Source: Aeromicrobium sp. Leaf245
GTDB taxonomy: Bacteria; Actinomycetota; Actinomycetes; Propionibacteriales; Nocardioidaceae
Assembly: GCF_942548115.1 (NCBI RefSeq)
Contig: NZ_OW824151.1
Location: forward strand, 3,224,001 to 3,288,000
Reading direction: 5' to 3'
DNA length: 64,000 nucleotides
The notes beneath the pieces were generated by a model, which worked only from the letters and a program-made list of their open reading frames with translations, did not search any database and had not been told where the DNA came from. The position numbers and the translations under genes were made by a program. This document shows positions 35,177-64,000 of the stretch, piece by piece; within the stretch, counting starts at the first letter, position 1; the number at the start of each line of letters is the position of its first letter.

Positions 35177-35340
35177 TCCTGCCGGGTCCGAACGGCCGGT
35201 CTCGAGCCGCGCTGCGTTGATCGGTCGGCCTGTCTGTTGTGCCGAGCGTGGACCTGCGGCTGCGCTTCCGCGCGTCGGAGCGAGGTCGGCCTTCGAGCGG
35301 CCCCGACGGAGCGGTTCACGCGCCGCGCCCGAGCCCGCCG

Positions 35341-35522
35341 CCAGAGGTAGGTCTCGCACCGAACCACGCCGTCAGAGGTAGGTGACGCACCCGACGACGC
35401 CGTCAGAGGTAGGTGACGCACCCGACGACGCCGTCAGAGGTAGGTCTCGCACCTCAAACGACCCGGATCCGGTGCGTCACCTACCTCTGACCCGCCGGTC
35501 AGGTGCCACACCTACCTCTGAC
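35341..35522. repeat. 31 bp direct repeat (4 copies) facing two inverted copies
   Basis: CAGAGGTAGGT begins at 35342, 35373, 35404 and 35435, exactly 31 bp apart; the full unit contains GTCAGAGGTAGGTGACGCACC. Two inverted copies, GGTGCGTCACCTACCTCTGA at 35471 and a variant near 35500, follow. The 3'-most direct copy and the first inverted copy give a long hairpin. It lies between the convergent M23 and pcrA genes, so one role may be transcription termination. Confidence 0.8.
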
Positions 35523-35557
35523 GATGCGGACCCGGCCAGGACGGCGGGGCCGATCGG

Positions 35558-42274: not shown

Positions 42275-43080
42275 GCACCGCCACCCACCCCGCCACCGCT
42301 CCCGCTCGACCTGGCTCGCGCGCCGTGCCCGAGCCGATCCCGTTCGGTCGCGTCGTCGGGGTCGAGATGCGCAAGACGTTCGACACCCGGGCCGGGACGT
42401 GGCTGCTGGCGAGCATCGGCATCGTCGCGGTGCTCGCCACGGCCGCCGTCATGCTGTGGGCACCCGACGACGCCCTGACCTTCGAGACGTTCGGCTCGGC
42501 CGTCGGCACGCCCATGGCGGTGCTGCTGCCCGTGGTCTCGATCCTGCTCGTGACCGGTGAGTGGTCCCAGCGCAGCGGGCTCACCACCTTCACCCTCGTC
42601 CCACGTCGGGGCCGGACCATCGCGGCGAAGGCCGTCGTCACGACGATCATCGGCGTCGGCGCCATGGCACTGGCGCTCGTGGTGGCGCTCGGCGGGGCCT
42701 ACCTCGGACCCGCGCTGCGTGGCACCGAGCCGGTGATCGACCTGACCGTCGGCCAGGTCGGCACGCTGGTGCTCGCGCAGGTGCTCGGCATGTTCGTCGG
42801 GTTCATGCTCGGCGTCGTCACCCGCAGCTCGGCCGTGGCGCTCGTGGCGTACTTCGTGTTCTGGGGTCTCCTGCCGACCCTCAGCCAGCTGCTCTACGCG
42901 ACGCAGGACTGGTACCGCGACGTCGTGGGCTGGGTCGACTTCGGCTGGGCGCACGGCGCGCTCTACGAGGGCGGGCTCTCGGCCACCGAGTGGGCCCAGC
43001 TGGGGGTCACCGGGACGGTGTGGCTGCTCCTGCCGACCCTCGCGGGACTGTGGCTCGTGATGCGTGCCGAGATCTCCTGA
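42271..43080 (+). CDS. ABC transporter permease, DrrB-like
   Basis: The 269-residue protein has six hydrophobic segments, starting with WLLASIGIVAVLATAAVML near residue 45 and ending with VWLLLPTLAGLWLVMRAE. The pattern fits ABC-2 type exporters. It is coupled to the ATPase gene by overlap and ends 6 nt from the end of the convergent antiporter gene. The substrate is unknown. Confidence 0.88.
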   Translation: MSTATHPATAPARPGSRAVPEPIPFGRVVGVEMRKTFDTRAGTWLLASIGIVAVLATAAVMLWAPDDALTFETFGSAVGTPMAVLLPVVSILLVTGEWSQRSGLTTFTLVPRRGRTIAAKAVVTTIIGVGAMALALVVALGGAYLGPALRGTEPVIDLTVGQVGTLVLAQVLGMFVGFMLGVVTRSSAVALVAYFVFWGLLPTLSQLLYATQDWYRDVVGWVDFGWAHGALYEGGLSATEWAQLGVTGTVWLLLPTLAGLWLVMRAEIS

Positions 43081-43086
43081 CGTCCG

Positions 43087-44796
43087 TCAGGGATGCGGCC
43101 GGCGGACCGCGGCGATCTCGGCGACGTCGAGCCGGGACAGGACGCTGTCGAGCACCTGCGAGTCGTACCGGCCCTCGGCACGCAGGTCGAGCAACGCCTC
43201 GCGCTGGTCGTCCAGCACCACACGCCTCAGCCGGGCGAAGTCGTCGAGACGCCGGTCGCGCTCGGGCCCGTCGTCGCCGGCCCACTCCCACTCCGCAGCG
43301 GGGGTGCGGCGGCGGCGCACCTGCTCCACCGCCTCGGGATCGATCGACCGGCCGTCCAGGCCGGTCTCCCGCACCTCCGTGCAGCGGGCGTCGGCCACCT
43401 CCCCCAGCGCGTCGAGGAGCGCCCGGAGCTGCCCGCGGCGCTGCTCCGTGCGGTCGGACTCGGCGCCGAGACGTCGGACCACCCACGACAACGTGCCACC
43501 CTGCACGAGCAGCGAGAGCCCGGCCACGCAGAACGCAGCGAGCACGAGCAGGCTGCGCTGCACCGTGTCGGGCGGGAGTGTCTGGGCGGCGGCGAGCGTG
43601 ATGCACCCGCGCATGCCGGCCCACACGAGGACCACACCGTCGCGACGGCCCAGCCGCTGCTCCTCGTAGAAGGTGAGGTCGGCCTCGCGACGGGCGATCG
43701 CCTGGAGCGCCCTCTCGCGACGTCGCTGGGAGTGCCGTTGGGCGTCGTCGGACGCCAGGTACTCACGAAAGGTGGCCAGGCGTGGGGCATGACGTGCCGA
43801 CGCCTTCCGGTCACGACGCAGCCCGAGGAGCAGGAGCCCGACGTAGAGCGAGCGCCCCACCCACAGCACGGCCAACGCGATGGCCGTCACCGTCGCGAGC
43901 CGGCTCCACGGCTGGCCCGAGGCCTCGAAGTCGGCGATGAGGGGCCGCAGCTCCAGGCCCATCACGAGGAACACCGCACCCTCCAGCAGGAAGGCGATGG
44001 TCCGCCAGTTGACCTCCTCCGCGATCCGGTCCTCCGCCCGCAGCTCCACCAGGCCGCGGGCCCCGATCGCCAGCCCGGCCACGACCACGGCCACGAGACC
44101 GGACCCGCCCAGGTGCTCGGCCGGCGCATAGGCCAGGAAGGGGACGACGAACGAGATCGACGTGGCGACGGTCGCGTCCTCCACGAGCGAGCGCACGAGC
44201 AGGCTGACCGCCGCGACCAGGGCGCCGACGAGCACGGCCACGACGACCGCCTGCACGAAGTCGAGCCCGACCTGCCAGATCGACACCGAGGCCCCCGTGG
44301 CGGCGACCGCAGTCCGCAGCAGCACGAGCGCGGTGGCGTCGTTGAGCATGCTCTCGCCGTCGAGCACCGTGACGAGGCGGGGCGCCACCCCGGTGCGACG
44401 CACGATCGACGTCGCGACGGCGTCGGTCGGGCTCACGATGGCTCCGAGGGCGAATGCCTCGGCGAAGCCGAGCCCCGGCACCACGAGCGGCAGCAGCCAG
44501 CCGAGCGTGGTGGCGGACGCGAGCACGAGCACCACCGACAGGCCGCTGATCGCCTTGAAGTCGCGACGGAAGTCCACCGTCGGCATGTTCACCGACGCCG
44601 CGTAGAGCAGCGGTGGCAACACCCCCGCCAGGATCACCTCCGGTGCGATCTCGAACCGGGGCACCCCCGGGACGTAGGAGATCGCGACACCCACGAGGAC
44701 GAGGATCAGCGGCGCCGCGACCCCCAGACGTCCGGCGAGCGAGGTCGCAGCGACGATGACCAGCACGCCGATCACGGTGAGGAGCAGTAGATCCAT
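43087..44796 (-). CDS. Na+/H+ antiporter, CPA1 (NhaP/YjcE) family
   Basis: The 569-residue protein has about 12 helices and a cytosolic tail. Family marks: AFALGAIVSPTDAVATSIVR near residue 105, LDGESMLNDATALVLLRTAV near residue 137 (ND pair for ion binding), and VVLVWAGMRGCITLAAAQTL near residue 390. It exchanges Na+ or K+ for protons to control pH and salt. The last 130 residues are charged and soluble. ATG at 44796 is at the edge of the long repeat element. The in-frame extension to 45093 belongs to that element. Confidence 0.92.
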   Translation of the reverse strand: MDLLLLTVIGVLVIVAATSLAGRLGVAAPLILVLVGVAISYVPGVPRFEIAPEVILAGVLPPLLYAASVNMPTVDFRRDFKAISGLSVVLVLASATTLGWLLPLVVPGLGFAEAFALGAIVSPTDAVATSIVRRTGVAPRLVTVLDGESMLNDATALVLLRTAVAATGASVSIWQVGLDFVQAVVVAVLVGALVAAVSLLVRSLVEDATVATSISFVVPFLAYAPAEHLGGSGLVAVVVAGLAIGARGLVELRAEDRIAEEVNWRTIAFLLEGAVFLVMGLELRPLIADFEASGQPWSRLATVTAIALAVLWVGRSLYVGLLLLGLRRDRKASARHAPRLATFREYLASDDAQRHSQRRRERALQAIARREADLTFYEEQRLGRRDGVVLVWAGMRGCITLAAAQTLPPDTVQRSLLVLAAFCVAGLSLLVQGGTLSWVVRRLGAESDRTEQRRGQLRALLDALGEVADARCTEVRETGLDGRSIDPEAVEQVRRRRTPAAEWEWAGDDGPERDRRLDDFARLRRVVLDDQREALLDLRAEGRYDSQVLDSVLSRLDVAEIAAVRRPHP

Positions 44797-45759
44797 GGGG
44801 ACCAGTGTCCACGCCGGTTCCCCGGCGGCGTTCGCTCGTCGCTGCCGATGGGGCTTCACCTGCTGCTGCGTCGCTGTGACTGCGAGTCGACCTGCTCCCC
44901 GAAAGGGCCTCGACCGGGGCGGTGGGTCTCGGCTCGGTTGGATGCGCGGGCCGCGGCTGGGTTCCCCTGCTGCTGCGTCGCTGTGACCCCGAGTCGGGTC
45001 GGTCTCCGAAAGGGCCTCGACCGGGGCGGTGGGTCTCGGGTCGACTGGGTCTGCGGGGGCGCGGCCACGATTCTTCATCTGTGCGGGATTCACGCACGAT
45101 TCTTCCTTCGTGTGGACCGTGCCTCGCGAAGGAAGAACCGTGGCGACGAAATGACGCCCCGGAGGGCAGTGATTCTCCCTTCTCGTGGACCGTCACGCGC
45201 AAAGGAAGAATCCCTGCCCACCTCACGCACCTGGGGCCCCCGCGGACGCAAGATTCTGCCTTCGCGTGCAGAAGCCCGAACGATGCTGCGTTCACGACGG
45301 GATCCGACCACGAATGCAGCATCCTTCGCCCCCTCACGCACGAACGCAGAATCTTGCGCCACCCCGAGCCACGCTCCGAGAGCCCACCCGAGCCCGGACC
45401 CGTCCGCCGGTCGAGGCCCTTTCGGAGCGCAGGTCCACTCGCAGCCACAGCGACGCAGCAGCAAGCGAAGACCCAGCCACAGCGACGCAGCAGCAAGCGA
45501 AGACCCAGCCACAGCGACGCAGCAGCAAGCGAAGACCCAGCCACAGCGACGCAGCAGCAAGCGAAGACCCAGCCACAGCGACGCAGCAGCAAGCGAAGAC
45601 CCAGCCACAGCGACGCAGCAGCGAGCGGGGACCCGGCCGAAGCGACGCACCGACGACCGACCCCCACTCGAAGGAGGACGGCCGAGGCCAGGCGGCCCGG
45701 CCGGCCCAGGCGGCCCAGGCGGCCCGGTCCGCCTGGCCTCATGCCTCAGCCGTCGGACC
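44797..45759. repeat. Long multi-hairpin repeat element, copy A (about 0.9 kb)
   Basis: There is no gene here. The element has two left outer arms with GAAAGGGCCTCGACCGG (44901-44917, 45008-45024) and a right arm CCGGTCGAGGCCCTTTC (45407-45423). The arms extend outward by GCTGCTGCGTCGCTGTG and its complement. Inside are hairpins: stem 1 (45095-45110/45127-45142), stem 2 (45164-45178/45204-45219) and stem 3 (45247-45259/45346-45358, with an inner stem 45282-45293/45312-45323). A 32 bp tandem array follows at 45443-45634. ORFs on either strand are spurious. Confidence 0.85.
45443..45634. repeat. 32 bp tandem repeat array, six copies
   Basis: AGCCACAGCGACGCAGCAGC begins at 45443, 45475, 45507, 45539, 45571 and 45603, exactly 32 bp apart. 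The first five copies are the same or nearly so; the last diverges. The unit is the complement of the outer-arm sequence (GCTGCTGCGTCGCTGTGGCT) of the long element. Confidence 0.9.
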
Positions 45760-46446
45760 TCAGATCAGACGCCGGTCGCTCGCCCACTTGGTGAGCTCGT
45801 GCCGGCTCGAGAGCTGCAGCTTGCGCAGCACGCTCGAGACGTGCGTCTCGACGGTCTTGACGGAGATGAACAGCTCCTTCGCGACCTCCTTGTAGGCGTA
45901 GCCGCGGGCGATGAGCCGCATGACCTCGCGCTCGCGCTCGGTCAGTCGGTCGAGGTCCTCGTCGACCTGCGCCACCTCGATCGTCCCCGCGAAGGCGTCG
46001 AGCACGAAGCCGGCGAGGCGAGGGCTGAACACGGCGTCGCCCGAGGCGACGCGGTGGAGGGCGTCGACGAGCTCGCTGCCGGAGATGTTCTTCGTGACGT
46101 AGCCGCGCGCGCCGGCGCGGATCACGCCGATGACGTCCTCGGCGGCGTCGCTGACCGACAGCGCCAGGAACCGCACGTCCGGTGCGGTGCGGTCGACCCG
46201 CCGGATCACCTCGGCTCCCCCGCCCCCGGGCATGTGCACGTCGAGCAGGACCACGTCGGGACGCAGCTCCAGGACGGCGGGGACGGCGGTGTCGACGTCC
46301 TCGGCCTCGCCCACCACCTGGAGCCGGGGGTCCTTCTCGAGCTCGGCGCGCACCCCGGTGCGGAACATGGCGTGGTCGTCGACGATGAGCACGCGCAGGG
46401 GCGCGCTGCCTCCGGGCCGGCCGGTCGGGGGACGGTCGTCGGTCAT
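45760..46446 (-). CDS. Response regulator, NarL/LuxR type (LiaR-like)
   Basis: The 228-residue protein has a receiver domain (VLIVDDHAMFRTGVRAELE; phosphoacceptor Asp in VVLLDVHMPGGGG near residue 68; Lys in GYVTKNISGSELVDAL) and a C-terminal LuxR HTH: LTEREREVMRLIARGYAYKE, VAKELFISVKTVETHVSSVL, RKL. Phosphorylated by the histidine kinase just upstream (4 nt ATGA overlap), it would activate cell-envelope stress genes such as the divergent PspC gene. ATG at 46446. The stop lies 15 bp from the repeat element. Confidence 0.93.
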   Translation of the reverse strand: MTDDRPPTGRPGGSAPLRVLIVDDHAMFRTGVRAELEKDPRLQVVGEAEDVDTAVPAVLELRPDVVLLDVHMPGGGGAEVIRRVDRTAPDVRFLALSVSDAAEDVIGVIRAGARGYVTKNISGSELVDALHRVASGDAVFSPRLAGFVLDAFAGTIEVAQVDEDLDRLTEREREVMRLIARGYAYKEVAKELFISVKTVETHVSSVLRKLQLSSRHELTKWASDRRLI

Positions 46447-47780
46447 GGGGCCTCCTCGGCCTCGGGTCGAGCAGGGTCGCGGGGTGCCGGATCGGGTCGC
46501 ACCGAAGAGGTCTCGCCCGCAGCGGGCGCCGCGCGTCGGGCGAGGGTGAGCGCCACCTCCGTGCCCTCCCCCGGCGTGCTGCGCACCCGGGCGGTGCCGC
46601 CATGACGCTCCATCCGGCCCACGATGGAGCCCCGGACGCCCATCCGGTCGTCGGCGATCAGGTCGGGGTCGAAGCCGGTCCCGCGGTCGCGCACGAACAC
46701 CTCGACCTGCGTGCTGCCGACCTCGGCGTACACGTCGACGCGATCCACCTGGGCGTGCTTGGCGGCGTTCACGACGGCCTCGCGCGTGGCGCGGACGAGC
46801 GCCACCAGGTCGGCGTCGAGCGCCGTGTCGCCCACCACCACCAGCTCGACCACCAGCTGGTGCGTCTCCTCCACCTCGCTGCGGACCTCCCGCAGGGCCG
46901 CAGCCAGGGAGTCACCCGGGGACTCCTCGTCCCCGTAGAGCCAGGACCGGAGCTCGCGCTCCTGACGTCGCGCCAAGGTGGCGACGGCGGCGGGGTCGTC
47001 GGCGTTCTTCTGCAGCAGCGCCAGCGTCTGGAGGACGGAGTCGTGCAGGTGCGCGGCCACGTCGGCGCGCTCCTGCGTGCGGATGCGCTCGCGGCGCTCG
47101 CTCCCGAGGGCCGTCACGAGCGAGATGATCCAGGGCCCGAGGAGCAGGAGCAGACCCACGACCGCGATGGCGAGGGCCGACCCGAGGTCGCGCACCGCGG
47201 ACAGGCCACGCTCCTGCGTCACGAGGTACACGGCGCCGAGGGCGACCAGGCCGAGCCCGACCGCGACGCGGGCCACGAAGCCCCACCCTGTCGTGCGGGT
47301 GAGCCAGGTCTGCCAGGCGGCGTCGTCGATCTGGCGCCAGATGACCGCCACCCCGACCACCACGATGAGCAGCGGGATCAGCAGCGACCCGGTGAGCCGA
47401 CCTCCGCCCTGCACGAGGAAGAGTACCCCGACGCCCACGGCGAGCACGGCGACGGTCTGCACGATCTCGAGGACGCCGGGGCGGCCCGCGGCGCGCATGC
47501 CACGACGGCTCGCGGACTCCAGCCCGGGCGACAGCTCCGGTCGGCGCAGTGGCATGAACCGCCACAGCAGCAGGTAGGCCAGGACGCCGACGCCGTTGAA
47601 CCAGGTGGTGACCACGAAGCCGACGCGCACCCACAGGACCGGCACGTCGAGGTGCTCGGCCAGCCCCATCGCGACCCCGCCGACGACGCGATGGTCCGCC
47701 GGACGGTAGGCGCGCCGCACCCGAGGGCGGTCGGAGGACGGACCAGGAGGGGTCCTGGCTCCGCGGGCGGTCTGGCTCAC
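46443..47780 (-). CDS. PspC-domain sensor histidine kinase
   Basis: The 445-residue protein starts with a PspC domain (about 22-80: RRAYRPADHRVVGGVAMGLA, VLWVRVGFVVTTWFNGVGVL), then about four more membrane helices, and a HisKA_3-type kinase: RADVAAHLHDSVLQTLALLQ with the His near residue 240, and ATPase domain with VVNAAKHAQ and VRDRGTGFDPDLI near 360. It belongs to the LiaS-like type that senses membrane stress. GTG 47780 after GACGATGCCGAG. The divergent gene also has a PspC domain. Confidence 0.9.
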   Translation of the reverse strand: MSQTARGARTPPGPSSDRPRVRRAYRPADHRVVGGVAMGLAEHLDVPVLWVRVGFVVTTWFNGVGVLAYLLLWRFMPLRRPELSPGLESASRRGMRAAGRPGVLEIVQTVAVLAVGVGVLFLVQGGGRLTGSLLIPLLIVVVGVAVIWRQIDDAAWQTWLTRTTGWGFVARVAVGLGLVALGAVYLVTQERGLSAVRDLGSALAIAVVGLLLLLGPWIISLVTALGSERRERIRTQERADVAAHLHDSVLQTLALLQKNADDPAAVATLARRQERELRSWLYGDEESPGDSLAAALREVRSEVEETHQLVVELVVVGDTALDADLVALVRATREAVVNAAKHAQVDRVDVYAEVGSTQVEVFVRDRGTGFDPDLIADDRMGVRGSIVGRMERHGGTARVRSTPGEGTEVALTLARRAAPAAGETSSVRPDPAPRDPARPEAEEAP

Positions 47781-47833
47781 CTCGGCATCGTCACACGTGC
47801 GCGCGAGCCGGCGCCACCAGGTGTCGCACCCGT

Positions 47834-47882
47834 GGTCCCCCGAGGTCCCCCGGGTTCGGGAACCAGGGTCGGACCAGGGTCG
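47834..47882. promoter_or_regulatory. Candidate control region between PspC-kinase and PspC-toastrack genes
   Basis: GGTCCCCCG occurs at 47834-47842 and 47844-47852; GGTTC/GAACC is a palindrome at 47853-47864; ACCAGGGTCG occurs at 47862-47871 and 47873-47882. The 10-11 bp repeat spacing puts sites on one face of the helix, as response regulators need. Confidence 0.4.
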
Positions 47883-47925
47883 CGCCCGATGGTGCCGCAC
47901 GCCCTGCCCGGCCGACGATGGAGCC

Positions 47926-49203
47926 ATGACCACGCAGCCCCCTCCCACCGACCAGGCGCCCGACCCGGGCGCGAGTCCCCACGCACCCGGCCCGCGTCGC
48001 GGCTTCCGTGCCTTCTCCGAGGTGCGCCGCAGCTCCGACGACCGGATGCTCGCCGGCGTCTGCGACGGCGTCGCCCGCCGCTTCGACATCGACCCGGTCG
48101 TCGTGCGGGTGCTCACGGTCGTCCTGTGCTTCGTGGGACTCGCCGGCGTCATCCTCTACGTCGCAGGGTGGTTGCTGCTGCCCGCCGACGACGAGCCGCG
48201 CAGCCACGTCGGTGAGTGGTTCGGGCTCGACACCAGCGAGGCGCAGGTGCGCGACACCGGACTCGTGGTGGCCGCGGTGCTGGCCGTGCTCGGTGTGCTC
48301 GGCGACGGTGGCTGGGGCTGGGGCGGGGACGGGGACGGGCTCTTCTGGGCCGCGCTCGTCATCGGCGGACCTGTCGCCCTGGTCGTCTGGCTGGTCCGGC
48401 GCGGGGGCCGGCGGCGCGGGCACGAGGGCCACGGCGTCGACACCGGGTCGGACCCCGCAGGCTCCAACCGCCCGACCGTGACCGATCCCGCCACCACGTG
48501 GTCGTCGACCCCCACCGACACGGTCGTCCTCGACACGGCCCCCGGCGAGCACCCGACCGCGGGCCTCCCACCCACTCCTCCGTCGGAGCCGCGCCGCTCG
48601 ATCCAGCCCCCGCCCCCGCGGGAACCACGTGAGCCGTACAGCTGGATCCCGACGCTGCTCACCCTGTCGTCGATCGCGATCGCCCTCGCCGTGGTGCGCC
48701 TCGTGGCCGACCCGACGTGGCCGACCTACGTGGCCGTGGCCCTCGCGGTCGTCGGTCTGGGCCTCGTGCTCTGCACCTTCGCGCGAGGAGGTCTCCCGCT
48801 CGTGCTCATCGGGCTGCTCCTGCTGCCCGTGCTCGCGCTGGGCACCCTGGTCCCCACGCTTCGCGGCGGGGAGCTGGACGTCGCCCCGCAGAGCGCGTCG
48901 CAGGTCCGCGACAGCTACTCCTTCGGCTTCGGCCAGTTCGAGCTGGACCTGACCGACGTGTCCGACCCGGAGGCCCTGCTCGGGCGGACGATCGAGATCG
49001 AGACCGGCATGGGCCAGACCGTGGTCGTCGTGCCCGACGGCGTGCCCGTCGTGGTCGACGCGTCGGTCCGCGCCGGTGACCTCGTGGTCCTCGGGGAGCG
49101 CGACAGCGGGGTCGACCGGCGACTGCGGGCCTCCGCCACAGGTCCGGCCCTCACGATCGACGTCGACCACTCGCTCGGTCAGGTGGAGGTGCGTCGCCCA
49201 TGA
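47926..49203 (+). CDS. PspC-domain membrane protein with C-terminal beta domain
   Basis: The 425-residue protein has a PspC domain at about 28-90 (RAFSEVRRSSDDRMLAGVCD, VVVRVLTVVLCFVGLAGVIL), more membrane helices at about 110-150 and 245-315, a proline-rich cytosolic linker (about 160-240), and a beta-rich C-terminus beginning about 330 (GQFELDLTDVSDPEALLGRT) like the toastrack domain of LiaF-like proteins. It is likely an output or co-sensor of the divergent kinase/regulator pair. ATG 47926 follows GACGAT by 6 nt. Confidence 0.85.
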   Translation: MTTQPPPTDQAPDPGASPHAPGPRRGFRAFSEVRRSSDDRMLAGVCDGVARRFDIDPVVVRVLTVVLCFVGLAGVILYVAGWLLLPADDEPRSHVGEWFGLDTSEAQVRDTGLVVAAVLAVLGVLGDGGWGWGGDGDGLFWAALVIGGPVALVVWLVRRGGRRRGHEGHGVDTGSDPAGSNRPTVTDPATTWSSTPTDTVVLDTAPGEHPTAGLPPTPPSEPRRSIQPPPPREPREPYSWIPTLLTLSSIAIALAVVRLVADPTWPTYVAVALAVVGLGLVLCTFARGGLPLVLIGLLLLPVLALGTLVPTLRGGELDVAPQSASQVRDSYSFGFGQFELDLTDVSDPEALLGRTIEIETGMGQTVVVVPDGVPVVVDASVRAGDLVVLGERDSGVDRRLRASATGPALTIDVDHSLGQVEVRRP

Positions 49204-49244
49204 CCGCCGCGCCCACCCCCGACCCTCTTTCCGACAGGAGCACC

Positions 49245-49541
49245 ATGACCACCTCGCCGACCTCGACCCGACGCCCCCGCGTGCGGCCCTTCAACACGCT
49301 CTTCGGCCTGTTCTTCCTCGCCGCGGCCGGCCTGTGGGCTGCGCGGGGCCAGGACGTGCTCGACGGTGACCAGATCGGGCGCGCCGTCGCGGTCGGACTC
49401 ATCGTCCTGGGCGTCCTCGGCCTGGCCGCGACGCTCGTCGTCAGCCGGCGCGGCCGTGCGCCGCGGGCCGCGGCGCCTGTCGCCCCGGACGTCGCGGACT
49501 ACGACGAGACCGACGACATCGATCCCGACCGCCGCGACTGA
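49245..49541 (+). CDS. Small membrane protein
   Basis: The 98-residue protein has two hydrophobic helices (LFGLFFLAAAGLWAA near 17-31; IGRAVAVGLIVLGVLGLAAT near 42-61) and an acidic tail. It follows the PspC gene at short distance and probably belongs to its operon. The ATG at 49245 has AGGAG 6 nt upstream; an alternative ATG at 49200 overlaps the previous stop (ATGA). Function unknown. Its 3' end overlaps that of the convergent glycerophosphodiesterase gene by 43 bp. Confidence 0.75.
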   Translation: MTTSPTSTRRPRVRPFNTLFGLFFLAAAGLWAARGQDVLDGDQIGRAVAVGLIVLGVLGLAATLVVSRRGRAPRAAAPVAPDVADYDETDDIDPDRRD

Positions 49542-50566
49542 CCTCCGGCGACGAGCCAACGGTCACGCGCCGCCACCGCGGTGGCGGCGTAGTCGGTGAA
49601 CACCCCGTCCACCCCGGCATCGAAGAACGCGAGGTACTCGGCCTCGGCGTCGCCGCGGGCGGCCACGTCGGCGCTGGAGCGGAAGTCGGCGGGCAGGAAG
49701 TTGTTCTCGTCGCGCATCGTCCAGATGTGCACGAGCAGACCCGCGGCGTGCGCGCGCTCCACCAGGCCGGTCTCCCCGTCCAGCCAGTGACCCCGTCGCC
49801 GCGCGATGACCAGCGTCTTGTTCGGTCCGATGCCGTCGACGTGGCGGGCGAGCTCGGCCAGCTGGTCGCTCGTGGTCAGGTCCGCGTAGGTACGCGGGTC
49901 ACCGGCCGCCACCAGGTCCCACGGCGCGTCCTTGCGGTCGAGCAGCTGGACGAGCGTGAGCGGTGTGCGCGGCCGCAACCCGCGCAGGTTGGCGGTCTCC
50001 ATCGACTGGATCACCACCGGGACGTCGGCGTCCGGACGGTTCAGGTCGGCGGCCTCCAGCGCGTCGATCAGCCGGTCGTCCAGGTCGAGACCCAGCCCGC
50101 GGAAGTAGGTGGGGTGCTTGGTCTCCACGTAGACCCCCACCCGACGATCGGCCCGGCGGGCGATCTCCAGGACCTCCTCGAACGTCAGCACCTGCTGCGT
50201 GCCGGCGAGGGGGAGGTTCTGCGGGCGCAGCTGCGGGAGACGCTCGCGCACGCGCAGGGTCTTGACCTCCTCGAGCGTGAGGTCCTCGGTGAACCAGCCG
50301 CTCAGCCAGACGCCGTCGATCCGCTTCGTGGTGCGCCGGTCGGCGAACTCCGGGCGCGCGGCGATGTCGGTGGTGTGCCCGATCTCGTTCTCGTGCCGCA
50401 CGACGAGGTGGCCGTCGCGCGTGGCGACCACGTCGGGCTCGATGTAGTCGGCCCCCTGCTCGATCGCCAGCTCGTAGGACGCGCGGGTGTGCTCCAGGCG
50501 GAGGCCCGGCACACCGCGATGACCGATGACGGCTGGGACGGGTGGCCAGGGCGCCGGACCGCTCAT
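49499..50566 (-). CDS. Glycerophosphodiester phosphodiesterase
   Basis: The 355-residue enzyme has the GDPD TIM barrel: catalytic VIGHRGVPGLRLEHTRASYE (His-Arg and Glu) at the N-terminus, then ADYIEPDVVATRDGHLVVRH (Glu-Pro-Asp and the second His) and FDAGVDGVFTDYAATAVAA at the end. It hydrolyses glycerophosphodiesters to sn-glycerol-3-phosphate and an alcohol. No signal peptide is visible, so it should be cytosolic. The ATG at 50566 is followed by a proline-rich stretch. The end overlaps the small membrane-protein gene by 43 bp. Confidence 0.92.
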   Translation of the reverse strand: MSGPAPWPPVPAVIGHRGVPGLRLEHTRASYELAIEQGADYIEPDVVATRDGHLVVRHENEIGHTTDIAARPEFADRRTTKRIDGVWLSGWFTEDLTLEEVKTLRVRERLPQLRPQNLPLAGTQQVLTFEEVLEIARRADRRVGVYVETKHPTYFRGLGLDLDDRLIDALEAADLNRPDADVPVVIQSMETANLRGLRPRTPLTLVQLLDRKDAPWDLVAAGDPRTYADLTTSDQLAELARHVDGIGPNKTLVIARRRGHWLDGETGLVERAHAAGLLVHIWTMRDENNFLPADFRSSADVAARGDAEAEYLAFFDAGVDGVFTDYAATAVAARDRWLVAGGQSRRSGSMSSVSS

Positions 50567-50616
50567 GACATCCAGTGAAGCACTCCCGACGAGCTCGTCG
50601 GGGGACCTCGCTGCGG

Positions 50617-51258
50617 TCAGAGCGTCCCGGCGATGGCCGCGACGAGGGCGAAGAAGGCCAGCAGCGCCGAGATCGGCACGGTCCAGAGCGTGGCGACGAC
50701 CAGGCTGACCGAGGTACCGATCTTGGGCGGCACGAAGTAGCGGGCGCGCGGGAGGTCGCCCACGCCCTCGATCCACCGCCCGGTCATGCCGACGCCCGAC
50801 CACACGCCCTTGAGCCGGGACAGCACCCGCCAGCCCCCGCCGCCGGCGATCGAGGTGAGTGCGCCGCGCGTCTCGTCGACCTTGTCGCTCAGGCTCACCG
50901 CGATGCCGAGCTCGGTGGCCAGCTGCTCGGGCTCCTCGACCGCCCGGAGCACACGGTGGCGACGCGCCGCGAAGGCCGCGGGCACCAGGGCCAGCAGGAC
51001 CGCGGCCACCACGAGCACCGTGCCGACGGTGCTGCCGGACGCCAGGCCGAGCGCGAACGTGGCCGCCAGGAACGGCAGGGGTGCGACCGCCAGCAGGAGC
51101 GACGGGATCCGCAGCAGCCGCACGGCCGGGACGATGACGGCGACCGCACGGTGCGCGGCGTCGGCCGTCTGCCCGTCGACGCGGGTGGTCGCCCCGTGCA
51201 CGGCGCGGTTGGTGCGCGCGCTCCAGCTCTCGCGTCGTGGTCCACCGTCGTGCGTCAT
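50617..51258 (-). CDS. Hypothetical membrane protein
   Basis: The 213-residue protein has three hydrophobic regions (about 40-65, 70-92 and 180-205) around a charged segment with EEPEQLATELGIAVSLSDKV. Not a family I recognise. The ATG at 51258 is divergent from the ethanolamine permease gene. The central segment may be cytosolic. The end is 51 bp from the GDPD start. Confidence 0.72.
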   Translation of the reverse strand: MTHDGGPRRESWSARTNRAVHGATTRVDGQTADAAHRAVAVIVPAVRLLRIPSLLLAVAPLPFLAATFALGLASGSTVGTVLVVAAVLLALVPAAFAARRHRVLRAVEEPEQLATELGIAVSLSDKVDETRGALTSIAGGGGWRVLSRLKGVWSGVGMTGRWIEGVGDLPRARYFVPPKIGTSVSLVVATLWTVPISALLAFFALVAAIAGTL

Positions 51259-51392
51259 GGCACCAGCGTAGGTCCCGCGCCCCAGCCGTCCACCGACTGC
51301 CGCGGGGATCGCGCACGGTGGCAACGGGACGCACACGCGGTCGAAACATCGTCTCGTTAGCGTCGCGACCCTCACGCACACGAGGAGGGGAC

Positions 51393-52826
51393 ATGGCCCA
51401 GCAGGAGAAGGCTCCCACCGGAGCCTCCGGGACGGACGCGACCGCCCAGGAGTACCTGGAGAAGCGTCAGCTGAAGCAGGGAACGGCGGGATGGGTCCTG
51501 CTGGCCGGGCTGGGCGTCAGCTACGTCGTCTCGGGTGACTACTCGGGCTGGAACTTCGGCCTCGCCGAGGGCGGCTTCGGCGGCCTGCTCATCGCGACGG
51601 TGATCGTCGCCGCCATGTACCTGGCCCTCGTCCTCGGCATGGCCGAGCTGTCGTCGGCGCTGCCCGCCGCAGGTGGCGGCTACACGTTCGCCCGGCGTGC
51701 GCTCGGGCCCTGGGGCGGCTTCGCCACCGGGACCGCGATCCTCATCGAGTACGCGATCGCCCCTGCCGCCATCGCGACCTTCATCGGCGCCTACGTCGAG
51801 TCGCTCGGCCTGTTCGGCATCACCGACGGCTGGTGGGTGTACCTGGCGGTGTACGCCCTCTTCATCGGCATCCACCTCGCCGGGGTGGGCGAGGCGCTCA
51901 AGGTCATGTTCGTCATCACCTCCGTCGCGCTCGTCGGCCTGCTCGTGTTCGCGATCGCGGCGATCGGCGACTTCGACGCCTCGCGGCTCACCGACATCGC
52001 TCCGACCGACGCCGCCGGGGCCTCGGAGCTCCTGCCCTTCGGCTACCTCGGCATCTGGGCGGCGATCCCGTTCGCCATCTGGTTCTTCCTCGCCATCGAG
52101 GGCGTCCCGCTCGCCGCCGAGGAGGCGGCCGACGCCGAGCGCAACGTGCCACGCGGGATCATCGCGGCGATGTCGGTCCTGCTCGTCACCTGCGTCGCCG
52201 TCCTCGTGCTCACGCCCGGCACCGGGGGCGCGGAGGCGATGTCGTCATCGGGCAACCCCCTCGTGGAGGCCCTCGGCGACGGGACGGCCGCGACCGTCGT
52301 CAACTACGTGGGCCTGGCGGGGCTCGTCGCGAGCTTCTTCTCGATCATCTACGCCTACTCGCGCCAGCTGTTCGCGCTGTCGCGGGCCGGCTACCTGCCG
52401 ACGGCGCTGTCGGTCACGAACCGCCGCAAGGCGCCGGTGCTGGCGCTCGTCGTCCCGGGCATCGTCGGGTTCGGGCTCTCGTTGACCGGCCAGGGTGCGC
52501 TCCTGCTCAACATGGCCGTCTTCGGCGCGGCCCTCAGCTACGTGCTGATGATGGTGAGCCACGTGGTGCTACGGGTCCGCGAGCCCGACATGCCCCGGCC
52601 CTACCGGACGCCGGGCGGCATCGCGACCACCGGCTTCGCGCTGGCCGTGGCGGCGCTGTCGGTCGTCGCCACGTTCCTCGTCGACAGCACCGCAGCCCTG
52701 TGGTGCGTGGCGGTCTTCACCGCGTTCATGGCGTACTTCGCCCTCTACAGCCGCCACCACCTCGTGGCCGCCTCCCCCGACGAGGAGTTCGCCGCACTGG
52801 CCCGCGCCGAGCAGGAGCTGGAGTGA
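51393..52826 (+). CDS. eat: Ethanolamine permease
   Basis: The 477-residue APC-superfamily permease has 12 helices. Family marks are GWVLLAGLGVSYVVSGDYSG, GGGYTFARRALGPWGGFATG (conserved loop) and FFSIIYAYSRQLFALSRAGY. It imports ethanolamine, used by the lyase genes right after it. ATG 51393 is preceded by GAGGAGGGG, a strong ribosome-binding site. The stop overlaps eutB's GTG. Confidence 0.92.
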   Translation: MAQQEKAPTGASGTDATAQEYLEKRQLKQGTAGWVLLAGLGVSYVVSGDYSGWNFGLAEGGFGGLLIATVIVAAMYLALVLGMAELSSALPAAGGGYTFARRALGPWGGFATGTAILIEYAIAPAAIATFIGAYVESLGLFGITDGWWVYLAVYALFIGIHLAGVGEALKVMFVITSVALVGLLVFAIAAIGDFDASRLTDIAPTDAAGASELLPFGYLGIWAAIPFAIWFFLAIEGVPLAAEEAADAERNVPRGIIAAMSVLLVTCVAVLVLTPGTGGAEAMSSSGNPLVEALGDGTAATVVNYVGLAGLVASFFSIIYAYSRQLFALSRAGYLPTALSVTNRRKAPVLALVVPGIVGFGLSLTGQGALLLNMAVFGAALSYVLMMVSHVVLRVREPDMPRPYRTPGGIATTGFALAVAALSVVATFLVDSTAALWCVAVFTAFMAYFALYSRHHLVAASPDEEFAALARAEQELE

Positions 52827-54262
52827 GCGTGGCCGGTCCGGGGGCAGGGGGACCGATACGCCGTCAGAGCCTCGGCGGCACGACCTACCGTTTCGACGGT
52901 CTCGTCGACCTCATGGCGAAGGCCACCCCCGCTCGCTCCGGGGACCAGCTCGCCGGGTGTGCCGCCGAGTCCGACGCCGAGCGCGCGGCGGCCGCGTGGG
53001 CACTGGCCGACGAGCCGCTGCAGACGTTCCTCGACGAGCACGTCGTCCCGTACGAGAGCGACGAGGTCACCCGCCTGATCATCGACTCCCACGACGCCTC
53101 CGCGTTCGCCCCGGTGGCCCACCTCACGGTGGGCGGGCTGCGCGACTGGCTGCTCGAGCAGTGCACCCGTCCCGACGCCGCGACCACCCTCGCGGCCCTG
53201 GCTCCCGGACTGACGCCCGAGATGGTGGCCGCCGTCTCGAAGCTCATGCGCAACCAGGACCTCGTGCTCGTCGCCCAGGCCGCGCAGGTCGTCTCGGCCT
53301 TCCGCACGACGATCGGCCTGCCGGGGCGGATCGCGACCCGCCTGCAGCCCAACCACCCCACCGACGACCCTGCCGGGATCGCTGCTGCGACGCTCGACGG
53401 GCTGCTCATGGGGTCCGGTGACGCGGTCATCGGCATCAACCCCGCCACCGACTCCCCGCAGACCACGGCACGTCTGCTGCACCTGCTCGACGAGCTCCGT
53501 CTGCGCTTCGACATCCCGATGCAGTCGTGCGTGCTCTCGCACGTCACGACCACGCTGGACCTCATCGAGCAGGGAGTGCCCGTCGACCTGGTGTTCCAGT
53601 CCATCGCCGGCACCGAGGGGGCGAACACGTCCTTCGGCGTCACGGTGCCGCTGCTGCTCGAGGCCAGCGCGGCAGGGCGGTCGCTCGGCCGCGGGACCGT
53701 GGGCGACCAGGTCATGTACCTCGAGACGGGGCAGGGGTCGGCTCTCTCGGCCGGCGCCCATCTGGGCACCGGTGGGAGGGCGGTCGACCAGCAGACGCTC
53801 GAGACCCGTGCCTACGGGCTGGCCCGGGCGCTCGACCCCCTGCTCGTGAACACCGTCGTCGGCTTCATCGGTCCGGAGTACCTCTACGACGGCAAGCAGA
53901 TCATCCGGGCGGGCCTGGAGGACCACTTCTGCGGGAAGCTGCTGGGGCTGCCGATGGGCGTCGACGTCTGCTACACCAACCACGCCGAGGCCGACCAGGA
54001 CGACATGGACACGCTGCTGACGCTCCTGGGCGTGGCCGGCGCCGCGTTCGTCATCGCCGTGCCCGGTGCCGACGACGTGATGCTCGGGTACCAGAGCCTG
54101 TCGTTCCACGACGCGCTCTACGTGCGGCAGGCGCTCGGACTACGACCTGCGCCGGAGTTCGAGGCGTGGTTGGCCGGTCTCGGCATGGTCGACGACGCGG
54201 GACGGGTGCTCCCGGTCGACCTCGGTGCCTCGCCACTGCTCTCGATCGCGGGACCGTCGTGA
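52823..54262 (+). CDS. eutB: Ethanolamine ammonia-lyase, large subunit
   Basis: The 479-residue catalytic subunit of the adenosylcobalamin-dependent lyase converts ethanolamine to acetaldehyde and ammonia. Typical blocks are TTYRFDGLVDLMAKATPARS, TRLQPNHPTDDPAGIAAATL, MGSGDAVIGINPATDSP, and GVDVCYTNHAEADQDDMDTL near the end. GTG 52823 overlaps the permease stop (GTGA). Part of the three-gene eat-eutB-eutC operon. No EutA reactivase or microcompartment shell gene lies in the window. Confidence 0.95.
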   Translation: MSVAGPGAGGPIRRQSLGGTTYRFDGLVDLMAKATPARSGDQLAGCAAESDAERAAAAWALADEPLQTFLDEHVVPYESDEVTRLIIDSHDASAFAPVAHLTVGGLRDWLLEQCTRPDAATTLAALAPGLTPEMVAAVSKLMRNQDLVLVAQAAQVVSAFRTTIGLPGRIATRLQPNHPTDDPAGIAAATLDGLLMGSGDAVIGINPATDSPQTTARLLHLLDELRLRFDIPMQSCVLSHVTTTLDLIEQGVPVDLVFQSIAGTEGANTSFGVTVPLLLEASAAGRSLGRGTVGDQVMYLETGQGSALSAGAHLGTGGRAVDQQTLETRAYGLARALDPLLVNTVVGFIGPEYLYDGKQIIRAGLEDHFCGKLLGLPMGVDVCYTNHAEADQDDMDTLLTLLGVAGAAFVIAVPGADDVMLGYQSLSFHDALYVRQALGLRPAPEFEAWLAGLGMVDDAGRVLPVDLGASPLLSIAGPS

Positions 54263-55053: not shown

Positions 55054-55069
55054 ACCTCGCCCCGTGCCC

Positions 55070-55075
55070 TAGGGT
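55070..55075 (+). promoter_or_regulatory. -10 element of a leaderless EamA-gene promoter
   Basis: TAGGGT ends 6 nt before the GTG at 55082. Confidence 0.45.
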
Positions 55076-55081
55076 GCTCGC

Positions 55082-55954: not shown

Positions 55955-56530
55955 ACTCCGCGTGCTGCTTCGCTGCCACTGGGCTTTCGCCTGCTGCTGC
56001 GCCGCTGTGGCTGCGAGTCGAGCTGCTCTCCGAAGGGCCTCGACCGGAGCGGTGGGACTGGTCTCGGCTGGGTCTGCGGGGCGCGGCCACGATTCTTCAT
56101 CTGCGCGTGATCCACGCACGGTTCTTCCTTCTCGTGGACCGTGCCTCGCGAAGGAAGAATCGTGGCGACGACCAGGGGCCCCGGAGGGGCAGTGATTCTC
56201 CATCGTCGTGGGACGGTCCACGAGTAGGGAGAATCTCTGCCCACCCGACGCACGAGACGCCCCCGGTGGACACAGGATTCTGCCTTCACGCGCTGAAGCC
56301 CCAACGATGCTGCGTTGGTGACGGGATCCCGTAGAGAACGCAGCATCCTCCGCCCTCTCCCTCACGAACGCAGAATCCTGCGTCCCCGGAGCCGCGCTCC
56401 GAGAGCCCGGCCGAGCCCGGACCCGTCCGCCGGTCGAGGCCCTTTCGGAGACCGACCCGACTCGCAGCCGCGGCGACGCAGCCGCAGGAGTGGGCCACCC
56501 CGACCGACGCAGCCGCAGGACGGGCCCGAA
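55955..56530. repeat. Long multi-hairpin repeat element, copy B
   Basis: There is no gene between 55922 and 56544. The left outer arm is CGAAGGGCCTCGACCGG (56031-56047) and the right CCGGTCGAGGCCCTTTCG (56430-56447). Stem 1 pairs 56117-56130 with 56151-56164, stem 2 56187-56201 with 56228-56242, stem 3 56273-56283 with 56370-56380, its inner stem 56306-56316 with 56338-56348. The order is the same as in copy A, in the same orientation, with one left arm instead of two and no 32 bp array. Confidence 0.85.
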
Positions 56531-58540: not shown

Positions 58541-58606
58541 GACTCGCGATGATGCCAGAGGCCGCCCTCCCCCGCCGGGGAACGCCCCCGGGGGCCGCGG
58601 AGCGGA

Positions 58607-59824
58607 TCACGTGAAGGTGAGCACCAGGAGGGAGAGGTTGAGCGCGATCACGACGGCCGCCACGGCGCACGCCGCCACCGTGGTGCCCACCCGGTTCACG
58701 TGCTCGCCCATCACGGCCCTGCTCGCGGTGAGGCGCACGAGGGGCACGAGCGCGAACGGGATGCCCAACGACAGCACCACCTGCGACACCACCAGGGCAC
58801 GGCTCGGGTCGATGCCGAGCACGAGCACGACCAGGGCCGGGATCACCGTCACCACCCGCCGCAGCAGCAGCGGCACGCGGATCCCGAGCAGACCCTGCAT
58901 GACCTCCGCGCCCGCGGCCGCCCCCACGGCCGTCGAAGCGAGGCCGGACCCGAGCAGGGCCACCGCGAACAGCAGCGCCACCCCCGCCCCGAGCTCCGAC
59001 GTGACGAGCGCGTGCACCCCCGTCAGGGTGTCGGTGCCCGGCAGACCCTGCAGGCCGGCCGCGGCGACGAGCAGCAGCGACAGGTTGAGGACACCGGCGA
59101 GCAGCAGCGCGAGCACGACGTCGGTCCGCGTGGCGCGCAGCAGCCCGGCCACCGACACCTCGCGGCCTCGTGCGCCGAGCCGGCCCGACGTGAGCCCCGA
59201 GTGCAGGTAGATGACGTGAGGCATCACCGTGGCGCCGATGATCCCCGACGCGAGCAGCACGCTCTCGGCGCCCGCGAACGTCGGCACGAGGCCACCGGCC
59301 ACCTCCGACGCGGCCGGTGGGTTGACGACGAGGCCGGCCACGAACCCGACGGCGATCATCGCGAGGAACCCGAGGATCGTGCGCTCGAGCGCACCCTGCC
59401 CGCGGGCGTCGCCGATCCTGAGCACGAGCAACGAGACCCCTGCCGTCAGCACGGCGCCGACCACGAGCGGCAGGTCGAACAGCAGGTACAGCGCGATCGC
59501 GCCCCCCACCACCTCGGCGAGGTCCGTGGCGATCGCGATCGCCTCGGCCTGCACCCAGTACGCCAGGCGTGGACCCCGACGCAGCCGCTGCCCGACGTGG
59601 GTGGCGAGCGACGCCTGCGTGACCAGCCCCAGCTTCGCCGAGAGGTACTGCACCAGCACGGCCATCACGTTCGCGAGCACCACGACCCACACCAGCGTGT
59701 AGCCGAACTGGGCCCCGGCGGTGACGTTGGTGGCCACGTTGCCGGGGTCGACGTAGGCGACCGCTGCCACGAAGGCCGGCCCGAGCAGGACCATGCGGCC
59801 GCGCAGGGTGGACGCCGTCAGCAT
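58607..59824 (-). CDS. mntH: Nramp-type divalent metal transporter
   Basis: The 405-residue protein has eleven helices. The metal-binding helix 1 holds DPGN (VAAVAYVDPGNVATNVTAGA), and helix 6 holds the His in GATVMPHVIYLHSGL near residue 200. It imports Mn2+ (or Fe2+) with protons. The ATG at 59824 is 6 nt after TACGCT on the same strand. It is divergent from the M15 peptidase gene; the 82 bp between holds a CTCGCGCGG/CCGCGCGAG palindrome that may be an operator. Confidence 0.94.
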   Translation of the reverse strand: MLTASTLRGRMVLLGPAFVAAVAYVDPGNVATNVTAGAQFGYTLVWVVVLANVMAVLVQYLSAKLGLVTQASLATHVGQRLRRGPRLAYWVQAEAIAIATDLAEVVGGAIALYLLFDLPLVVGAVLTAGVSLLVLRIGDARGQGALERTILGFLAMIAVGFVAGLVVNPPAASEVAGGLVPTFAGAESVLLASGIIGATVMPHVIYLHSGLTSGRLGARGREVSVAGLLRATRTDVVLALLLAGVLNLSLLLVAAAGLQGLPGTDTLTGVHALVTSELGAGVALLFAVALLGSGLASTAVGAAAGAEVMQGLLGIRVPLLLRRVVTVIPALVVLVLGIDPSRALVVSQVVLSLGIPFALVPLVRLTASRAVMGEHVNRVGTTVAACAVAAVVIALNLSLLVLTFT

Positions 59825-63504: not shown

Positions 63505-64000
63505 TCCGTGGTCGCCGAGCGTCGCCCTGCGGCTGCGTCGGTGCGACTCCTGGGCGGGGCTGGTCTTCGAAAGGGCCTCGACCGGAGCGGGATCCTCGTC
63601 CTGATTGGGTCTGCGGCGCGCGGTCGGGTTCGCACTCGCTGCTGCGTCGCTGTGGCTACGAGTTCTCCTGCGGCTGCGTCGCTGTGGCTACGAGCCGGGT
63701 CGGTCCCCGAAAGGGCCTCGACCGGAGCAGCGGGTCCGGGTCGGCTGGGTCTGCGGGGCGCGGCCACGATTCTCCATTCGAGTGAGATCCACGCACGATG
63801 CTTCCTTCTCGTGGACAGTGCCTCGCGAAGGAAGCATCGTGGCGACGGATCTGGCCTCTCAGGGGCAGTGATTCTCCATCGTCGTGGAACGGTCAGGGCA
63901 AAGGGAGAATCCCTGCCCACCCGCCGCGCGAGTCGCCCTGTCGGACGCAAGATTCTGCCTTCGCGTGCAGAAGCCCGAACGATGCTGCGTTCGGCACCGG
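63505..64000. repeat. Long multi-hairpin repeat element, copy C (cut by the window end)
   Basis: Same element in the same orientation: left outer arms with CGAAAGGGCCTCGACCGG at 63568-63585 and 63708-63725 (two, as in copy A), stem 1 at 63794-63807/63828-63841, stem 2 at 63863-63877/63905-63919, and the left side of stem 3 (63946-63958 and 63981-63992). The right side and right outer arm lie beyond 64000. It sits upstream of the DEAD-box gene; no gene is present here. Confidence 0.85.

What the first reader, a model, noticed from the sequence alone, without database searches (positions are those of the whole stretch)
44820..45745. Three-copy family of nested, multi-hairpin intergenic elements
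Seen: about 0.5-0.9 kb non-coding stretches at 44.8, 55.95 and 63.5 kb share the same ordered parts: an outer inverted repeat around GGGCCTCGACCGG, then internal hairpins whose arms all carry a GAT(T/G)CT(T/C/G)C core, with spacers of similar length. All three lie on the same strand within 20 kb. No transposase, no ORF with plausible codon use and no CRISPR-like regularity is present. It could be a structured RNA, a MITE-like mobile unit or a nucleoid-protein/cruciform site. I know of no named family with this layout, so it is the best candidate for something undescribed.
Basis: seen in the sequence. Interest (0 to 1): 0.85.

Follow-up and report, generated by a model that had tools for sequence, protein, structure and literature searches.

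The report
Composite palindromic repeats that spread intergenically
The finding is part of a large, mosaic family of palindromic DNA repeats lying between genes, present or absent at different places in sister species; it resembles the REP/BOX repeats of other bacteria, but the enzyme family that usually goes with such repeats was not found and its real partner is unknown.

Summary
The three stretches share an ordered set of hairpins inside an outer inverted repeat. The genome (3.46 Mb) holds at least 20 full-length copies (81-100% identity to window copy 2) plus partial ones, 40 distinct gaps in all, none overlapping a predicted gene. The same outer frame also encloses other hairpin families. 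Two of these families have fixed geometry: loops of exactly 8 nt (26 of 26, type C) and 18 nt (20 of 20, type D), variable in sequence. The frame occurs in 4 of 49 same-genus genomes. Presence differs reciprocally between sister species, one gain polarised by outgroups. Copies are mosaic and, between the own genome and its sisters, more alike within than between genomes. The Y1 transposase family of RAYTs (PF01797) is absent from all 49; Rfam has no match. Best reading: a BIME/REPIN/BOX-like, non-autonomous composite repeat, homogenised by gene conversion and tolerated mostly at gene 3' ends. A regulatory RNA is not supported. New variant of a known kind; mobilising protein unidentified.

The parts
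44837..45639 (+). Copy 1, whole composite element (left units and doubled left arm, core, right arm, right 32-bp array)
   Evidence: intergenic gap 44797-45759 by a home-made codon-usage gene caller
45004..45427 (+). Copy 1 frame: CTCCGAAAGGGCCTCGACCGG ... CCGGTCGAGGCCCTTTCGGAG with type A core; a second left arm lies at 44897-44917
45095..45142 (+). Copy 1 hairpin H1 (CACGATTCTTCC / GGAAGAACCGTG)
45164..45219 (+). Copy 1 hairpin H2 (GGGCAGTGATTCT / AGAATCCCTGCCC)
45244..45361 (+). Copy 1 nested hairpin H3 with H4 (45277-45328) in its loop
   Evidence: the H3/H4 part also occurs without the rest at further loci
45442..45633 (+). Copy 1 right-hand tandem array, 32-bp unit CAGCCACAGCGACGCAGCAGCAAGCGAAGACC, five exact units and a sixth with substitutions (inverted relative to the left-hand units)
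   Evidence: D1
55963..56514 (+). Copy 2, whole composite element; frame arms 56028-56047 and 56430-56450
   Evidence: this site is empty in three sister species
56117..56164 (+). Copy 2 hairpin H1
56187..56242 (+). Copy 2 hairpin H2
56268..56385 (+). Copy 2 nested hairpin H3/H4
63526..64000 (+). Copy 3, left part (doubled left arm, H1 63794-63841, H2 63863-63918, start of H3); continues beyond the window to about contig position 3288125
35344..35518 (+). Related solitary palindrome of family B (GTCAGAGGTAGGTGACGCACC, 31-bp period, direct then inverted units)
   Evidence: the same hairpin family fills the frame at L141, L142, L143, L146 (sorted by eye)
58579..58607 (.). Site that is empty here but holds an element in G007, G026 and G039
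   Evidence: also empty in G033 and G046

Best explanation
It is a lineage-restricted family of non-autonomous, composite palindromic repeats, working like BIME/REPIN/BOX elements. SHOWN: a conserved outer inverted repeat (frame) with inverted ~32-bp units outside it and interchangeable hairpin modules inside; dispersal over intergenic sites in both orientations; reciprocal presence/absence between sister species with one gain polarised by two outgroups; mosaic copies; more likeness within than between genomes for most genome pairs; fixed arm spacing with variable loop sequence in two of the small module families. INFERRED: new copies arise by copying from other loci through an unidentified enzyme that recognises paired half-sites at fixed spacing; existing copies exchange tracts by gene conversion; they survive mainly where they do not break promoters, and there may act passively as two-way transcription terminators or insulators.
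For: Copy number: 20 full-length places and many partial ones in the own genome, 81-100% to the query, a lower bound because 40 of 151 first-look candidates were scored; 41 of 41 examined loci (40 distinct gaps) without an overlapping predicted gene. Convergent gaps 20 of 40 against 13 of 54 gene pairs in the window (P 0.016); divergent 2 of 40 against 12 of 54. Restriction: frame arm GAAAGGGCCTCGACCGG 48, 58, 35 and 90 times in G000, G007, G026, G039; 0 in the other 45 same-genus genomes; single hits in 2 of 292 other family genomes; reversed-pattern control 0. Gain/loss: between the blocks flanking copy 2 there are 16, 44 and 71 nt in G039, G007 and G026; conversely those three hold an element at window 58579-58607, where own has 21-27 nt and G033 and G046 align without an insert. 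At one convergent gene pair (TrkA-like, named by eye) the gap is 622-733 nt in the four genomes and 0-84 nt in 14 of the 26 other genomes fetched. Modularity: same frame with other hairpin families. Homogenisation: mean identity within genomes 0.83-0.88, own versus trio 0.76-0.77; PHI test of my own writing, 0 of 1000 permutations as low at k=5, 10, 20. Geometry: loop 8 nt in 26 of 26 type C and 18 nt in 20 of 20 type D hairpins; arms 1.7 and 1.57 bits per column, loops 0.45.
Against: No transposase could be linked: PF01797 is absent from all 49 genomes (other transposase families not searched), and no pair of frame arms that I read in the own genome encloses a gene (the list is capped). No target-site duplication could be defined. 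Movement itself was not observed; gain by a recombination route without any transposase remains open. Homogenisation is incomplete: between G007 and G026 mean identity (0.82) equals that within each (0.83, 0.83), and 3 of 19 ortholog pairs rank in the top 5% of all pairs. That G033 and G046 are outgroups rests on TrkA identity only, not on a tree. Type E gave no hairpin in the geometry test and type B was not run. The terminator role is inferred from position.
Confidence: 0.62

Rival explanations
1. The modules are binding sites of sequence-specific DNA-binding proteins (nucleoid, roadblock-terminator or regulator). The fixed spacing of conserved half-sites with random loops reflects protein geometry, and multiplication is by recombination plus selection rather than by transposition.
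For: Constant arm spacing with variable loops; some positions regularly do not pair (type D position 10 in 13 of 20, type C position 19 in 18 of 26), i.e. sequence is kept more than pairing; direct-repeat spacings of 29 or 40 nt in type C (9 loci) and 31 nt in type B, close to whole helical turns; B+C+D modules lie 3' of at least one gene in 36 of 39 contexts, against 42 of 54 window gene pairs.
Against: Whole 0.6-0.9-kb composites stand at sites that are empty in relatives, which binding-site turnover alone does not give. Arm conservation is partly built in, because arms had to match within 3-4 mismatches (loop length was free between 2 and 60).
Confidence: 0.2
2. Structured regulatory RNA family transcribed from intergenic promoters.
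For: Very stable predicted folds, z about -10; in hairpin H2 across four species 54 two-sided cells (shuffle mean 23, maximum 40 of 1000) and 734 of 828 cells paired (shuffle maximum 704) (46 of 60 cores gave an H2).
Against: Within the own genome the covariation term is -0.02 and 4 of 110 pairs show two-sided changes; the other strand folds too; no Rfam family; the two-sided changes in H2 affect 7 pairs, no more than in shuffles (mean 6.9). A four-species alignment of whole cores gave an inconclusive structure.
Confidence: 0.06
3. No mobility: palindromes grow in place by replication slippage and template switching at gene ends, and are only later made alike by gene conversion.
For: Exact 32-bp tandem units; small tandem duplications of the gene tail at the empty copy-2 site in G007 and G026; strong mosaic signal.
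Against: The elements at the 58.58-kb site in the trio contain the ordered type A frame and core found elsewhere (by eye), which growth in place does not explain.
Confidence: 0.12

Closest known systems
BIMEs and REPs (bacterial interspersed mosaic elements)
   Same: Composites of short extragenic palindromes in alternating orientation, high copy (start of the abstract of PMC2817692, seen in the listing)
   Different: Here modules are framed by one conserved outer inverted repeat, composites of 0.4-0.9 kb; no Y1 transposase in the genus
REPINs with RAYT transposases
   Same: Two inverted conserved repeats forming a hairpin, found singly and in clusters, many copies (passages of PMC3116915)
   Different: Y1_Tnp family absent from all 49 genomes; composites with nested modules and inverted ~32-bp units
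CGTC-tagged REPs
   Same: Palindromic repeats reported as not associated with transposase genes (passage of PMC3733652)
   Different: The terms actinobacter-, nocardi-, streptomyc- and corynebacter- occur 0 times in that paper's main text; tags were not tested here
BOX elements of Streptococcus pneumoniae (recalled, no call)
   Same: Constant end modules with variable internal modules, intergenic
   Different: No sequence relation tested; ends here are one long inverted repeat with units outside
Foldback (FB) elements of Drosophila (recalled, no call)
   Same: Long inverted ends built of short tandem repeats
   Different: Eukaryotic; ends and transposase not compared here
MITEs (general knowledge)
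   Same: Short, non-coding, inverted ends, presence/absence between relatives
   Different: No parent IS, no defined target duplication, internal modular hairpins

Membership tests
REPIN/RAYT system | Y1 tyrosine transposase (RAYT, PF01797) in the genome | tested here: not met
   0 of 49 genus genomes; the same search rings in 5 of 14 control genomes
REPIN/RAYT system | Two inverted conserved repeats at set spacing forming a hairpin, extragenic, many copies | tested here: met
   Types C and D: 26 of 26 and 20 of 20 hairpins with constant loop length among the sequences fetched; 52 and 32 arms in the own genome; 1 of 15 type D loci fetched (L180) lies inside a predicted gene
BIME (mosaic of palindromic units) | Composite of different short palindromes in variable combinations | tested here: met
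   Same frame with several hairpin families, sorted by eye; by structure only
BIME (mosaic of palindromic units) | Sequence relation to enterobacterial palindromic units; gyrase or IHF binding | not tested
   No comparison or binding data
MITE | Terminal inverted repeats | tested here: met
   Arms 88% complementary in copy 1
MITE | Target-site duplication | tested here: inconclusive
   Filled and empty sites compared by eye at two loci; the unit arrays blur the junctions
MITE | Ends shared with an autonomous transposon | tested here: inconclusive
   No pair of frame arms that I read in the own genome encloses a gene; the list is capped and the other genomes were read only in part
Rfam structured RNA | Match to a curated covariance model | tested here: not met
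   0 at gathering thresholds in the window; two microRNA matches far below their gathering scores for copy 2 (19.5 of 96 and 18.4 of 112 bits)
Rfam structured RNA | Covariation supporting the stems | tested here: inconclusive
   Own copies: next to none; between species an excess of cells but not of pairs in H2
BOX element | boxA/boxB/boxC sequences | not tested
   Only the modular plan is compared, from memory

The most novel reading that the evidence does not exclude
The genus carries a general, RAYT-independent system of palindromic repeat families that replace one another from clade to clade. Each family is built from two conserved half-sites at a strictly fixed distance around a random loop (8 nt, 18 nt, and another family in G002/G048 with arm spacings of 43 and 42), recognised by an undescribed DNA-processing protein that both copies and preserves them. 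In one four-species clade these modules became packed into framed, nested super-palindromes, the elements of this finding.
Probability: 0.3. Interest if true: 0.82.

Novelty: new variant of a known kind. Interest (0 to 1): 0.6.

Why it matters
REP-type repeats are explained mainly through RAYT transposases. Here is an abundant, lineage-restricted, palindromic repeat system with exact geometry and evident turnover in a genus where that transposase family was not found. Finding what copies and homogenises it would show whether there is a second route to REP-like populations. The fixed-spacing random-loop hairpins make the recognising protein directly testable by pull-down.

Tried and rejected
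Three-copy reading: rejected. RAYT or IS200-like mobilisation: rejected (one family only; other transposase families were not searched). Phage or plasmid carriage: no match for copy 2 in phages or plasmids; the frame arm and a type A pattern have 0 matches in viral contigs; one exact match each to the type C and D arms there has no partner arm within 3 mismatches in the locus and is taken as chance. Two apparent framed cores in G033 (L127, L129) lie inside predicted genes. The 492-627-nt gaps at the TrkA site in G029, G040, G030 and G042 do not look like this element and read as likely coding by eye; not confirmed by a gene search. Position bias along the chromosome: none found for 40 type A loci (KS P 0.16) or 60 frame or element loci (P 0.65). 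Covariation on whole four-species cores: alignment too poor, 30 pairs only. One search mixed H2 and H4 hairpins and is replaced (14 of 60 cores dropped there for lack of a recognised H2). In one search the alignments to the trio did not bridge the insert and say nothing; filled sites there rest.

Papers: PMC3116915 and PMC3733652, passages only; PMC2817692, start of abstract in a search listing. Others only as listings. That nothing is in print on this family rests on those searches of an open-access library and is not a proof. BOX, foldback and E. coli BIME details are recalled. Gene names (TrkA, DUF3159-like and others) were read by eye.

Full report
OBSERVATION. The three stretches are real and homologous. 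Copies 1 and 2 carry a complete outer inverted repeat, and within it hairpins H1, H2 and the nested pair H3/H4, with GATTCT[T/C/G]C-type arms (H4: GATGCTGC); copy 3 runs off the window and is complete in the genome. Single-strand folding is far better than shuffled sequence (z -10.6 and -10.2), and the other strand of copy 2 folds well too (z -9.3). Rfam has no match.

COPY NUMBER AND CONTEXT. In the own genome (G000, one contig of 3,463,989 bases; the window is 3224001-3288000) a search with copy 2 finds 20 places covering nearly the whole query at 81-100% identity (100% being copy 2 itself) and many partial ones; only 40 of 151 first-look candidates were scored, so this is a lower bound. Of 41 loci examined with a home-made codon-usage gene caller trained on the window, none overlaps a predicted gene. 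They represent 40 distinct gaps: 20 convergent, 18 co-directional, 2 divergent, against 13 convergent, 29 co-directional and 12 divergent of 54 neighbouring gene pairs in the window (convergent, P 0.016; the window pairs include the gaps of copies 1 and 2). The 20 full copies have a nearly constant frame-to-frame length, 407-424 bases, and both orientations occur.

ANATOMY. Alignment of the 20 full copies gives, from outside in: degenerate ~32-bp units in direct order; the arm CTCCGAAAGGGCCTCGACCGG; an inner arm; H1, H2, H3 containing H4; then the mirrored arms and mirrored units. Copy 1 has five exact and one altered 32-bp unit on the right. Copies 1 and 3 have a doubled left arm, and further copies show repeated arms.

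THE FRAME IS MODULAR. A search for the frame arm with up to 2 mismatches in the own genome gave 108 places (reversed-pattern control 8; the list shown is capped) and more arm pairs than type A cores. I read nineteen further places and one at 67 kb. By eye, seventeen of the nineteen and the one at 67 kb hold other hairpin families in the frame or half-frame: B (GAGGTAGGTGRCGC, 31-bp period), C (ATCGGTGGATCCTCAACC), D (TTTCGGACACTTCCGGGGC), E (GGTGACTTCTCCACCG) and F (TGACGCCTT...). Of the other two, L148 mixes A-like and another hairpin, and L154 has a short A-like remnant. The letters A-F are my labels. Types B, C and D are also numerous outside the frame: 54, 52 and 32 arms in the own genome. 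In the trio G007, G026 and G039 the arm counts are 11, 6, 2 (B), 17, 11, 5 (C) and 8, 3, 4 (D). In the other 45 genus genomes there are single hits in 8 (B), 0 (C) and 5 (D); reversed-pattern controls gave 3 (B), 0 (C) and a handful (D) of single hits.

FIXED GEOMETRY. For types C and D, arms were sought in the own-genome sequences fetched, with up to 3 or 4 mismatches and any loop of 2-60 nt. All 26 distinct type C hairpins have an 8-nt loop and all 20 distinct type D hairpins an 18-nt loop, while loop letters are variable (0.45 bits per column against 1.7 and 1.57 in the arms). Arm conservation is partly built in by the search; loop length is not. Some tandem copies share loops and are recent duplicates. 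Certain stem positions are regularly unpaired (type D position 10 in 13 of 20; type C position 19 in 18 of 26), so sequence is kept more strictly than pairing. Type E as I wrote its arm gave no hairpin, and type B was not run because the script stopped there. A different set of genomes has another palindrome family, CCCAGATTTG..TCCTGCAC: 36 arms in G002, 54 in G048, 11 in G035, 13 in G037, and 1-4 in G018, G032, G033 and G034. Its paired arms lie 43 apart in 15 of 15 pairs in G002, and 42 (20) or 43 (2) apart in 22 pairs in G048, counting the pairs that I read off the listing.

DISTRIBUTION. The exact arm GAAAGGGCCTCGACCGG occurs 48, 58, 35 and 90 times in G000, G007, G026 and G039, 0 times in the other 45 genomes of the genus, and once each in 2 of 292 other genomes of the family; the reversed pattern gave 0. 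A blast search with copy 2 gave the same four, plus single weak matches in G030 and G033 (up to 13 candidates scored per genome). So the frame was found in four genomes of one genus.

GAIN AND LOSS. Comparing window 43000-62500 with relatives: between the blocks flanking copy 2 there are 16 nt in G039, 44 in G007 and 71 in G026. Conversely those three have 647-873 nt with an element at window 58579-58607, where the own genome has 21-27 nt (sequences). G033 and G046 align there with no insert; taking them as outgroups (TrkA identity to own 89% and 86%, trio 95%), the trio gained it. At the copy 1 site the trio has about 490 nt of different, apparently coding sequence. At the TrkA-like convergent pair, 42 of 49 genomes have the gene and 30 loci were fetched. 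The four genomes have gaps of 622-733 nt; of the other 26, 14 have 0-84 nt and 12 have 140-627 nt, two of the latter ending at a contig end. G033, the next closest by TrkA identity, has a different 196-nt nested palindrome there. Other own sites are shared with the trio: in a partial sample (37 loci of the trio), elements lie in the same gene neighbourhood as own L009, L011, L015, L016, L024, L028 and L042.

HOMOGENISATION. Of the cores fetched, 60 passed a length and marker filter (24 own, 15 G007, 13 G026, 8 G039). Mean identity is 0.86, 0.83, 0.83 and 0.88 within G000, G007, G026 and G039, 0.76-0.77 between own and trio, 0.81 and 0.79 between G039 and the other two, and 0.82 between G007 and G026, the last no lower than within either. 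Flanking genes at the same sites within the trio are 0.90-0.985 identical in DNA. Of 19 ortholog pairs, 3 rank in the top 5% of all pairs of their two genomes and 9 fall in the lower half, so orthology is largely but not wholly erased; several of these pairs share a site and are not independent. Neighbouring sites are more compatible than distant ones (a PHI test written for this, 124 sites, 0 of 1000 permutations at three window sizes), and pairwise alignments alternate identical and diverged tracts. This is the pattern of gene conversion.

RNA? In the 20 own copies the covariation term is -0.02, with 4 of 110 pairs showing two-sided changes. For H2 across the four species (46 of 60 cores, 36 distinct arm pairs) two-sided cells (54) and paired cells (734 of 828) exceed all 1000 shuffles (maxima 40 and 704), but the number of pairs with such changes does not (7, mean 6.9). 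Related sequences inflate such counts, and DNA-level correction of palindromes gives the same sign. An RNA function is therefore not supported, though not excluded.

MOBILISER. The obvious candidate, the Y1 transposase family that includes RAYTs and IS200/IS605 TnpA, is absent from all 49 genus genomes although the search rings in 5 of 14 control genomes. No arm pair that I read in the own genome encloses a gene. Other transposase families were not searched.

READING. The element works like a BIME/REPIN/BOX-type repeat: non-coding, mosaic, palindromic, clade-specific, extragenic. It is not filed as a REPIN/RAYT member, because the defining transposase was tested and not found. The most likely mechanism is copying in trans by an unidentified enzyme that sees paired half-sites, plus gene conversion among copies, with survival biased to gene 3' ends. 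Dispersal, presence/absence, mosaicism and geometry are shown; the enzyme, the copying reaction and any terminator role are inferred.

Noticed in passing
window 35177-35557: A convergent gap holds a family B palindrome: GAGGTAGGT units every 31 bp, four direct then two inverted, with a 24-bp outer stem (at most small mismatches).
   Followed up: partly
window 44797-45759 versus L121 (G039), L122 (G007), L124 (G026): Where the own genome has copy 1, the three sister species have about 490 nt that read as a small lipoprotein-like open frame (by eye); one was lost or gained.
   Followed up: no
L122 and L123, copy 2 empty site: In G007 and G026 the empty site carries small tandem duplications of the tail of the upstream gene (about 14-15 bp units).
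   Followed up: no
L199 and other places (G002, G048, G035, G037): An unrelated high-copy palindrome family CCCAGATTTG...TCCTGCAC with arm spacing fixed at 43 or 42, suggesting that clades of the genus have their own families.
   Followed up: partly
L102 (G037), L108 (G035), L111 (G038), L114 (G034), L112 (G008), L118 (G006): gap after TrkA: Further, differing palindromes or short inverted arrays at the same convergent gene pair (by eye).
   Followed up: no
L162 and L165 (G000, about 1000.2 kb and 2248.8 kb): Whole type C hairpins repeated in tandem at 70-71 bp (four and five copies).
   Followed up: no
L160, L163, L164, L166-L170, L172 (G000): Extra half-sites of type C stand 29 or 40 nt from the hairpin arm, a difference of about one helical turn.
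   Followed up: no
window 45684-45740: A further hairpin (GAGGCCAGGCGGCCCGG / CCGGTCCGCCTGGCCTC) directly beside copy 1, possibly the ordinary terminator of the neighbouring gene.
   Followed up: no
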